Assembly (NCBI GenBank): GCA_949751835.1
Contig: CATKHK010000049.1
Span: forward strand, 248,001-312,000
Length of the DNA stretch: 64,000 nt
From: Blepharisma japonicum
Lineage: Eukaryota > Ciliophora > Heterotrichea > Heterotrichida > Blepharismidae
Reading direction: 5' to 3'
Made by a program: the position numbers and the translations under genes. The notes below the pieces were generated by a model, which ran no database searches, was not told the origin of the DNA, and saw only the letters and a list, made by a program, of their open reading frames with translations. Below, one piece after another: positions 18,427-21,380 of this stretch; position 1 is the first letter of the stretch, and each line of letters begins with the position of its first letter.

Positions 18427-18797
18427 ATGAAAAAATATTTCTCCTTTTGTTTATTGTATCATTCATACAAGCGTACTCTGTCCCACCTTCTAATAGTGAA
18501 GTAAAAGATTGCGAGTTTGATTTAGATTGCCCAATTTTTGATTGTTTAACATATTAGTGTGGCAAGCTTGTTGTGAAAACAATTGGTGAAAAGCCCAAGG
18601 AAATCTATGCTGTTGGAGGATGCTCAGGCCAACTATGTATCAGGATTTATGAAGATGGAATCACAACATGTGAGTGGAAATCTAAATATGGATGCCATAT
18701 GGAATATGGAAACTGTGACTTGATTGATGGAAAATGTCAAAATAGCCTGCTGTTGAGCTCAAGGCCTGTGTTAGCGATAGAAGCTAAGCCACAGTAA
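18427..18797 (+). pseudogene. Decayed secreted cysteine-rich protein
   Basis: One frame reads a hydrophobic signal-like segment (FLLLFIVSFIQAYSVPP), then a Cys-rich domain (DCEFDLDCP..., GGCSGQLCIRIYEDG, GCHMEYGNCDLIDGKC), ending in TAA. The only suitable ATG (18427, ATGAAAAAATAT) is one base out of frame with it, at a run of six A, and a TAG at 18555 interrupts the domain. No 15-nt GT-AG intron removes the TAG; the nearest fit is 14 nt and breaks the frame. Two independent lesions argue for a pseudogene. No family is recognised. Confidence 0.65.
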
Positions 18798-19259
18798 AAC
18801 CTCTCTTTATAAATCGGTCTTATCTATAACTTTAGTTTAGGGTAAATTAACTGTCTATATATAGAAATAGTGATAATCAATTAAGGCAAATGAAAAAAGG
18901 TGTACTATCAGATGTTTTATGAAGAACTGAATATATTGGTATTAAAGTAAATCAAAATGGGGAAAGTTTTGAAAGCATAGTCATTAGCAAATAAAATAAT
19001 TAGAGGCTTGATTCTTTTCAAGATTAATTAATATCAGCACTTTGTCGAAATAGTGAATTTGTCTATTTTTCTTGATGCATTCAATATCTTTTTTAAGCTT
19101 TTTTTAATAAAATCAATATAAATATTTATATTAAAACTGTATATGAAGATAGCATTATTAATTCCTGAAGTGTTTAACCATATCGTAATTAATTCATCAT
19201 AATAATAAAGAATTATTACGATTTATCGAAAATTAATTTAATGCAACTAAGAAATTCAA
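18798..19259. other. Spacer with a 33-codon open stretch
   Basis: AT-rich. A plus-strand ATG at 18890 opens 33 codons with one TGA (to TAA at 18991). There is no similarity I recognise; probably not a gene. Confidence 0.3.
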
Positions 19260-20876
19260 TTAAGATAAAATTTTATTGAGCGTAAATTCAGCACAGCAAT
19301 CTTGATGACTTGCAAATACCCCTTTAAGGCAAACTATACATAAATACCCACATTTTTTGCAATTATAATAAAAGCTTCCTCGTTTTCTTGTCGAAGCACC
19401 CCCACATTTTCCACATTTCACTGTTTTTTCGTTTAAAGATACTTGTGTACAATAATAATTTAAGTGCTCAGATTTGCTTACCTTGCATATCTTGCAGTAA
19501 TCCGTTGAGCATTCCCTACAGCTAAAACATTTTCCATTTTTTGGGATTCTGGCTCTTCCTCAACATCTAACATCAGGACAAAAAATTTCTGACTCATATA
19601 TAGCGATATCTTGCTCAATAACAAAACTATAGCAAGTATCACACATAAATGAGCCATATGCAGCCAATCTTTTTCTAGCACAATCTTCATGAATTCAATA
19701 TCCACAAGGGCACTTACTCTTAATTTTATTTTGATGTACATATATTTCATTGCAGCATTGATTGCATTGTGCATTCAAATTTAATGATATTGACTGATTT
19801 TCTATCATTAGAAAAATAATTTCAAGCTCTGTGGAATTTACAGAACCATTGCAGCACTTTGAGGTTAATAAATTTAAGAATTTTTTGTTAGAGACTCTTA
19901 CTTTGAATCTAATTTTAGAGTTTGATAAGATTGAAACATTAAATTTTTCACTTGAATATGATTTTGTATTTATCATTTCAGCTAAGCTTTGGGCATATGC
20001 ATATGGGTTATATTTCAAGGGTTTTATATTTTTATTATAAAACTCATATAATTCAATAAAATCTGGTCTTTCGTTTTCCTTCACTTTTAGCATTATTCTT
20101 AATAGAGATCTGATACTTTTGTATTTTACTTTGTGCAATCTAGCTTTTATCTTTAACTCAAGGTTCGAAAGGTTTATTAAATCCATTGGCTCTTTAAAAC
20201 TTTCCATAAAAAGAAAAGTAAGCCCAAGAGAGTACACATCTGATTTATAAACATTATGTTTAATTCTCCCTTTGATATTACGGCCTTGCTGAAAAGCAAT
20301 TCATGCTTCTCTAAGAATTGGACTCAAATATATAGGGGATCCAGAAATCGTCACTTCAGCGTTGACTTGATACTCAAAACCTTGTATAGAGCACCCAAAG
20401 TCTCCAATTTTCATAGATCCATCATCTGCTATAAAAATATTTTTAGGCTTTATATCTCTATGTGCGTAATTGGAAATTTCTAAATTTGTAAATGCCTCTA
20501 TAAGGTATTCAAATTGGGTTAATAGCTCAGTTTCAGATCATGGATTTCCAGTGTCTTTTCTTTTTAAGATTTCTTTTTCAAGATCGCCGCACTTAAAATA
20601 TTCTAATAGTATACAAAGGACAGGAGACTTGCATTTCAAATCTCAGTAGTAGCCATAAAATTTAGGAATTGAGGGATAATTTAATGCATACATCGCTGCT
20701 ACTTCTCTAAGCAATTTTGCACAATCTCGATTGCAAGGATATATTTTTTTAATAACAATTTGCTTTTCAGGCTTATTTCTAAATCTCCCAAGGCAAATTT
20801 CAACTTGCAAATCTATCTTGTAAAGTGTTTCCCCTGTAAACTCTATGCTGTCTTCGCTAACTTCTAAATTAGCCAT
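19260..20876 (-). CDS. Protein kinase fused to an RBR-like (RING-IBR-RING) zinc module, 538 aa
   Basis: The N-terminal kinase domain (about residues 15-290) has Lys in IVIKK (about 43), Glu58, HRD at 139-141 (AHRDIKPKNIF), DFG at 159-161, and SPIYLSP in place of APE. The Gly loop is poor. TGA codons encode Trp at 20643, 20538 and 20307, and again at the border of the zinc module (19695). From about residue 370 Cys/His clusters follow: CNQCC...CPCGYWIHEDC...CDTC (RING1-like), CPDVRC...CFSCRECSTDYCKIC...H...C (IBR-like) and C488GKC...C506KKC...C513IVC (RING2/Rcat-like). In RBR ligases the residue before the x4-C of Rcat is the catalytic Cys; here it is Ser501. The protein is thus a kinase with a probably non-catalytic RBR module. 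There is no intron. Confidence 0.85.
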
Positions 20877-20914
20877 AATAGTTTAAGAAATCTATAATAT
20901 TTAAAATTATTATC

Positions 20915-21380
20915 TTACTCGCTAGGCAACTCCACTGAAATTAGTCTTTCCCCACTTTCTTCTTTAAATTTAATCGCACTTCAGGCTGACTGGGTCTTCA
21001 CTATTACATTTAACTGGAATTTCCATTTTCTTTTGGACAATTAAGTGGTTAATTAAAAAATTTGGGTTACTCAAGGTGCTTAGGTCTTGCATTTCTTTTT
21101 TCATAAGAGACTTTATCCTATTTTTAATAGCACTGCCCAGAGGATCAGGTGATTGTGAGCTCTACATCTTAAAATGGGGTCTTGATGAAAAAATATATGT
21201 CATAAGGGTGAGCATTTGACAACTCCTTTATTAATTCATCCAAACTCCATATTCCACTCCATAACTTTTAGCTGCATGCTCCGATTAGATTTTACAACAG
21301 AAAGCACCTATTCAGCAGAAAACTCTCTTCAATTCTGCAAAAAATTTGGATTTATCAATACTATCAAGATTTCTTCGTAT
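20915..21380 (-). pseudogene. Decayed gene with several frameshifts
   Basis: Protein-like stretches appear in changing frames on the minus strand: RNLDSIDKSKFFAELKRVF, then DELIKELSNAHPYDIYFF, a TAA, DVELTIT, SPDPLGSAIKNRIK through NPNFLINHLIVQKKMEIPV, and finally FKEESGERLISVELPSE ending in TAA at 20915. At least three frame changes and one in-frame TAA separate them, and no 15- or 16-nt intron reconciles them. The origin is unknown. It lies directly upstream of the kinase-RBR start, so remnants overlap that promoter. Confidence 0.5.

What the first reader, a model, noticed from the sequence alone, without database searches (positions are those of the whole stretch)
19260..20876. Protein kinase fused to an RBR module with Ser at the catalytic Cys site
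A kinase with HRD and DFG is followed by RING1-, IBR- and Rcat-like clusters in one frame. The residue four before the C506 ligand, the catalytic Cys in RBR ligases, is Ser501. A kinase could thus use a pseudo-RBR for ubiquitin or substrate binding.
Basis: partly seen in the sequence, partly recalled or inferred. Interest (0 to 1): 0.7.

Follow-up and report, generated by a model that had tools for sequence, protein, structure and literature searches.

The report
Kinase with a disabled ubiquitin-ligase tail
A ciliate gene joins an apparently active protein kinase to a tail built like the end of an RBR ubiquitin ligase, but the tail's active-site cysteine is a serine in both copies of the gene, so the tail probably binds or regulates something and no longer passes on ubiquitin.

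Summary
On the minus strand, 19260-20876 reads as one 538-residue frame if TGA is Trp: a kinase with its catalytic residues, then three zinc clusters. Ser501 lies on the catalytic-Cys column of the last one (Rcat); the +2 histidine is Tyr503. The one full-length paralogue found (51%) has the same S-F-Y-Y. No orthologue was reachable.

Two corrections. Profile comparison supports IBR and Rcat but not RING1; related kinases carry a finger in the same place, mostly followed by a RING-like finger. Both linkers are shorter than in 13 canonical RBRs of the genome. So it is better read as a zinc-tailed kinase with an IBR-pseudo-Rcat pair than as a whole RBR with one change.

The inactive Rcat is the best-conserved segment between the two copies: 68%, against 59% kinase and 44% IBR. 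This suggests a kept non-catalytic role; which one is inferred. Ser here has a precedent, Arabidopsis ARI12 (PMC4503874). No kinase-RBR fusion appeared in the literature listings I saw. Both structure predictions were unusable. Verdict: real, new variant of a known kind, moderate interest.

The parts
19260..20876 (-). whole gene, 538 aa with TGA=Trp, ATG start, TAA stop
20022..20834 (-). protein kinase domain, residues about 15-285 (K43, E58, HRD D141, N146, DFG D159; no Gly-rich loop motif; APE Glu replaced by Ile187)
   Evidence: Pfam Pkinase 2.9e-21; residues; coordinates; missing motifs read by eye
19767..20021 (-). linker, residues 286-370, 35% identical between the two copies
19632..19766 (-). 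zinc finger 1, residues 371-415, CxxC..CxC....HxxC..CxxC; not shown to be an RBR RING1; a finger sits at the same place in related kinases
19449..19580 (-). IBR (BRcat) domain, residues 433-476
   Evidence: hhalign to canonical IBR 92.8%; Pfam IBR 1.3e-4 in the paralogue's tail
19293..19415 (-). Rcat-like domain, residues 488-528, without the catalytic Cys and the +2 His
   Evidence: hhalign to canonical Rcat 87.1%, to canonical IBR 8.0%
19374..19376 (-). Ser501 (AGC) on the catalytic-Cys column; Tyr503 (19368-19370) on the +2 His column

Best explanation
It is a Ser/Thr-type kinase of a ciliate whose C-terminal zinc tail comes from the ubiquitin-ligase toolkit but cannot run the RBR thioester step. 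Shown by sequence: kinase catalytic residues kept; a finger, an IBR and an Rcat-like domain follow in one frame; nucleophile and +2 His both replaced; the same replacements in the paralogue; Rcat the most conserved segment of the pair. Inferred: the IBR-pseudo-Rcat pair is kept as a binding surface (ubiquitin, an E2~ubiquitin, or a ubiquitylated substrate) that directs or gates the attached kinase. In most of the related kinases examined the same place is held by a RING-like finger, so the family may couple phosphorylation to ubiquitin in more than one way.
For: One open frame. Kinase residues present. IBR+Rcat pair 95.5% by profile comparison; 0 of 300 Cys/His-keeping shuffles as good. Catalytic column: 42 Cys, 2 Ser (this gene and its paralogue), 1 Lys, 1 Gln, 12 gaps among 58 aligned rows. 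Invariant R-x-R-G-S-F-Y-Y-x-C in both copies. Rcat 28 of 41 identical, against IBR 19 of 43 and finger 1 20 of 47; without shared Cys/His, Rcat 19 of 32 against finger 1+IBR 23 of 74, Fisher p 0.009. Both copies stay open, while a third copy on contig C4 lacks a counterpart for about 1.4 kb of the gene and has TAG and TAA in the rest.
Against: No binding data of any kind. Only two sequences carry the whole architecture, so conservation rests on one pair, and I chose the segment boundaries after seeing the sequence. Rcat alone matches only moderately beyond its Cys/His pattern (4 of 300 shuffles reach it), and an HMM of the 13 canonical RBRs finds the paralogue at 2.9e-4 but this gene only at E 1.4. 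The canonical set was chosen with a pattern that demands the catalytic Cys, so it cannot represent Cys-less Rcats. Structure models are unusable. The kinase lacks the glycine-rich loop motif and the APE glutamate, so its activity is likely but not certain.
Confidence: 0.5

Rival explanations
1. The zinc tail is only a structural or autoinhibitory appendage of the kinase, without any tie to ubiquitin; IBR-type fingers are simply the zinc scaffold that this kinase superfamily uses.
For: Zinc tails occur in two separate kinase clades of the genome, without an Rcat-like domain in the others looked at; finger 1 and the linkers do not fit a working RBR.
Against: The two last domains match IBR and Rcat in the right order, each better than it matches the other; Rcat is conserved beyond its zinc ligands.
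Confidence: 0.3
2. The third module was never catalytic: it is a second IBR, so Ser501 is not a replaced cysteine.
For: IBR and RING2/Rcat share one fold (PMC11354881, passages); the Rcat-alone match is reached by 4 of 300 shuffles.
Against: It matches canonical Rcat at 87.1%, canonical IBR at 8.0% and the IBR-like tails of four other kinases at 2.3%; the CxxC first pair and the Gly before position 501 are as in Rcat.
Confidence: 0.15
3. It is a working ligase that uses Ser501 to carry ubiquitin as an oxyester, as considered for ARI12.
For: ARI12 has Ser at this place and was reported monoubiquitylated in vitro; HHARI with Ser there is said to form an ester but to build chains less well (PMC4503874, passages). 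Loss of the +2 His is not decisive: 11 of 42 Cys-bearing rows have another residue there and 1 more is cut off.
Against: No RBR-type RING1 seen; RING1-IBR linker 17 and 12 residues against 38-39 in 13 canonical RBRs; +2 His replaced by Tyr in both copies.
Confidence: 0.05

Closest known systems
Arabidopsis ARIADNE12 (ARI12), PMC4503874 (abstract and passages seen)
   Same: natural Ser at the catalytic-Cys position of the Rcat/RING2 domain
   Different: described there as an RBR-family E3, with no mention of a kinase domain in the passages seen; reported monoubiquitylated in vitro
Canonical RBR E3 ligases (HHARI, HOIP, parkin; recalled) and 13 RBRs of the same genome
   Same: IBR followed by an Rcat-like domain with the usual zinc-ligand pattern
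   Different: catalytic Cys and +2 His absent, finger 1 not RING1-like, both linkers shortened, kinase in front
Zinc-tailed kinases of the same genome (L011, L012, L014, L018, L049 three genes, L050, L052; and L067, L079, L080, L082, L083)
   Same: kinase followed by one or more RING- or IBR-type fingers; the first nine form the sister clade in the kinase tree
   Different: no Rcat-like domain seen by eye; of the first nine, seven show a RING-like last finger, one a partial one, one none in its frame; the second group ends in RING and/or IBR-like fingers
PINK1 and parkin (recalled; regulation of parkin by PINK1 also in passages of PMC3940038)
   Same: a kinase and an RBR working together
   Different: separate proteins there, one chain here; kinship to PINK1 was not tested

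Membership tests
RBR E3 ubiquitin ligase | RING1 of RBR type that binds E2~Ub | tested here: inconclusive
   hhalign to 13 canonical RING1s 12.3%; ligand spacing differs; binding not testable
RBR E3 ubiquitin ligase | IBR/BRcat domain | tested here: met
   92.8% to canonical IBR, though 1 of 60 Cys/His-keeping shuffles scored as high; Pfam IBR 1.3e-4 in the paralogue's tail, none in this protein
RBR E3 ubiquitin ligase | Rcat domain framework | tested here: met
   87.1% to canonical Rcat, 8.0% to canonical IBR; 4 of 300 shuffles reach it
RBR E3 ubiquitin ligase | catalytic Cys in Rcat | tested here: not met
   Ser501 in this gene and the same Ser in the paralogue
RBR E3 ubiquitin ligase | His two residues after the catalytic Cys | tested here: not met
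   Tyr in both copies; but only 30 of 42 Cys-bearing rows have His there
RBR E3 ubiquitin ligase | RING1-IBR and IBR-Rcat linkers of usual length | tested here: not met
   17 and 11 residues (paralogue 12 and 11) against 38-39 and 17-28 in 13 canonical RBRs
RBR E3 ubiquitin ligase | ubiquitin thioester and transfer | not testable with these tools
   needs biochemistry
Eukaryotic protein kinase | Pkinase domain with Lys, HRD and DFG residues | tested here: met
   Pfam 2.9e-21; residues
Eukaryotic protein kinase | glycine-rich loop and APE Glu | tested here: not met
   not seen in the sequence; Pfam match starts at profile position 22

The most novel reading that the evidence does not exclude
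A kinase and its ligase-derived regulator in one chain: Ser501, inside a basic R-x-R-G-S-F context, is phosphorylated by the protein's own kinase, and this switches the pseudo-active site between binding ubiquitin and releasing the kinase, a cis version of the kinase-RBR pairs known in trans.
Probability: 0.08. Interest if true: 0.75.

Novelty: new variant of a known kind. Interest (0 to 1): 0.4.

Why it matters
If the tail binds ubiquitin or a ubiquitin-carrying enzyme, it would be a direct physical link between phosphorylation and ubiquitin signalling in one protein, and a case in which an RBR active site was given up while its domain stayed under selection. The genome offers related kinases with RING-like or IBR-like tails, a natural series in which to ask what such tails do. 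As it stands the find is a domain architecture with a plausible use, not a demonstrated mechanism.

Tried and rejected
Standard and TAA/TAG=Gln codes left stops in frame; TGA=Trp opens it. A hidden 15-base intron inside the IBR (coding position 1396) was considered and rejected: it ends in GAG, and its removal would leave one residue between C464 and H471. A search of solved structures with the tail profile gave 6 hits at E up to 10, none an RBR; the best were two HERC2 ZZ-domain chains at 0.0069 and 0.013. The search for related loci with the tail in viral contigs and with the whole pair in prokaryote genome contigs found no relative; neither collection is a fair place to look for a ciliate protein. 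Structure prediction of residues 357-538 and 433-538, each from one sequence, gave mean pLDDT 32.5 and 45.0; no fold search was run on them. A whole-genome census of kinase+IBR genes was not made: after refusals I fetched 7 further regions and asked for no more, so counts of such fusions are lower bounds. One search read the minus-strand loci in the wrong direction; one search repeats it. In some searches the kinase count printed 0, I believe because the output pipe was cut; one search repeats it (47 kinase frames). Profile comparison of the post-kinase tails with those of nine related kinases gave only 12.8%, though with finger 1 in register; that the fingers are the same rests on position, on the tree and on tblastn matches that run past the kinase to residues 404-455, and is weak.

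Full report
What is there. The gene lies on the minus strand, 19260-20876, and is open over 538 codons only if TGA is read as Trp; five TGA codons are used and the stop is TAA. The genome is 45.2 Mb in 224 contigs, and many of its kinase matches also run through TGA; the listed matches to three copies of CCCTAACA lie at contig ends. PMC9942806 (passages, section 5) gives UGA=Trp, a 41 Mb genome, 15-16 bp introns and the same telomere repeat for Blepharisma stoltei. So this is most likely a Blepharisma-like heterotrich ciliate; no tool named the species.

Kinase. Pfam finds Pkinase at 2.9e-21, and the best-scoring solved structures are NEK7 kinases. Lys43, Glu58, Asp141, Asn146 and Asp159 are present. 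No glycine-rich loop motif is seen, and the APE glutamate is Ile187 (by eye). I judge it probably active.

Tail. Three zinc clusters follow. I compared this gene and its paralogue, as a two-row profile, with canonical RBRs of the same genome: from the 30 IBR loci L019-L048, 24 cores fitted a pattern that includes the catalytic Cys, and 13 remained after removing near copies. The IBR+Rcat pair scores 95.5%, IBR to IBR 92.8%, third module to Rcat 87.1% and to IBR 8.0%, finger 1 to RING1 12.3%. Shuffling columns while keeping shared Cys/His: pair 0 of 300 as good, Rcat alone 4 of 300; an earlier smaller run gave Rcat 0 of 60, IBR 1 of 60, whole tail 0 of 40. A profile HMM of the 13 finds the paralogue at 2.9e-4 but this gene only at E 1.4. 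Pfam gives IBR 1.3e-4 and IBR_1 0.013 for the paralogue's tail and nothing relevant for this one; as a whole protein the paralogue's IBR is under the Pfam cut-off (20.0 of 24.3 bits), in the genome search over it (25.2). The assignment of this gene therefore leans on its paralogue.

Active site. In the profile alignment Ser501 sits on the catalytic Cys. Of 58 rows (57 distinct frames found at E below 1e-3, the paralogue among them, plus this gene) the column holds Cys in 42, Ser in 2, Lys in 1, Gln in 1 and a gap in 12; 11 of the 12 are pieces that end before or at the column, and L045 has the domain without the residue. The rows include overlapping fetches and tandem copies, so they are not independent, and the model was built from Cys-bearing RBRs. 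A strict pattern over 706 frames gave 24 rows, 22 Cys and 2 Ser. The +2 position is Tyr in both Ser rows; in the 42 Cys rows it is His in 30, another residue in 11 and cut off in 1, so loss of that His alone does not prove inactivity. PMC11354881 (passages) describes the Cys-His-Glu/Gln triad.

Shape. RING1-to-IBR spacing is 38-39 residues in all 13 canonical RBRs but 17 here and 12 in the paralogue; IBR-to-Rcat is 17-28 against 11 and 11. Together with the poor RING1 match, the usual way of presenting E2~ubiquitin seems missing. PMC5462532 (passages) says RBR RING1s have up to four residues between the seventh and eighth ligands and canonical RINGs exactly two; finger 1 has two.

Relatives. 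Among 80 scored matches over the whole genome only one further full-length copy was found (L010, 51%). The paralogue's tail alone finds only these two genes at E up to 10 (3 candidates scored). In a tree of 43 kinase domains the two pair at 100/100 and are sister to nine kinases with zinc-tail frames (clade of eleven 99/96); a separate clade of eight (100/96) also has Cys-rich tails, clear in five (L067, L079, L080, L082, L083) and slight in L060, L063, L064. Of the nine, a first finger at the place of finger 1 is followed by a RING-like finger in seven by eye, a partial one in one, none in one. Three of the nine were scanned with Pfam: RING-type hits 0.0049 to 0.025, under cut-off. In the second clade L067 and L079 have RING plus IBR-like, L080 and L083 IBR-like, L082 RING (by eye); Pfam gives IBR only for L080 (0.0031, under cut-off). 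As a group these four IBR-like tails match canonical IBR at 89.2%. Kinase-IBR fusion thus seems to have arisen at least twice here; this depends on the unrooted tree and on a sample of kinases picked by similarity to this one.

Selection. Between the two copies, identity is 59% in the kinase, 35% in the linker, 43% in finger 1, 44% in IBR and 68% in Rcat; dN 0.19 for Rcat against 0.29 for the kinase, with dS 1.4 to 3.5, so ratios are rough. Without shared Cys/His, Rcat 19 of 32 exceeds finger 1+IBR 23 of 74 (p 0.009) and is no higher than the kinase (155 of 265, p 1.0). One pair of sequences and boundaries set by me: suggestive. A third copy on contig C4 lies in a segmental duplication of window 18427-21134 (78-87% identity in the matched parts); window 19057-20432, about 1.4 kb, has no match there, where about 0.3 kb lies between the flanks, and its remaining kinase piece holds TAG and TAA.

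Literature. Listings (titles and starts of abstracts) for RBR or IBR with kinase domain in ciliates, protists, Dictyostelium or as fusion (1 of 1; 39: 1 of 1; 40: 20 of 29; 66: 20 of 64; 67: 3 of 3; 74: 1 of 1) and for Stentor/Blepharisma kinomes (20 of 52; 20 of 83) showed no kinase-RBR fusion. Term searches inside PMC2904391, PMC1420674 and PMC4177888 gave no such passage. The library lacks most subscription papers, so this does not prove novelty. Ser at the catalytic position is known from ARI12 (PMC4503874, passages).

Mechanism. Shown: architecture, residues, conservation. Inferred: that the tail binds ubiquitin, a charged E2 or a tagged substrate and steers the kinase. I put 0.5 on this, 0.3 on a purely structural or autoinhibitory tail, 0.15 on a never-catalytic second IBR, 0.05 on a Ser-oxyester ligase.

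Noticed in passing
window 18427-21134 and L066 (G000:C4:597254-599154): Segmental duplication: the C4 copy keeps an open Myb-like neighbour (332 aa, Myb by eye) but a decayed kinase gene, while the window keeps the kinase gene and, by eye, a shortened copy of the Myb-like end upstream.
   Followed up: partly
L067, L079, L080, L082, L083: A second clade of kinases with C-terminal RING and/or IBR-like fingers, one of them on the window's own contig (C49:215910-217265).
   Followed up: partly
G000 contigs C125, C73, C41: Tandem runs of canonical RBR genes with Cys in place and, by eye, hydrophobic C-termini.
   Followed up: no
L073, L077, L045: RBR-like frames without a kinase match that also lack the catalytic Cys (Lys, Gln, and a gap at the column).
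   Followed up: no
L071, L072: Two similar large frames with many RING-like clusters before an RBR.
   Followed up: no
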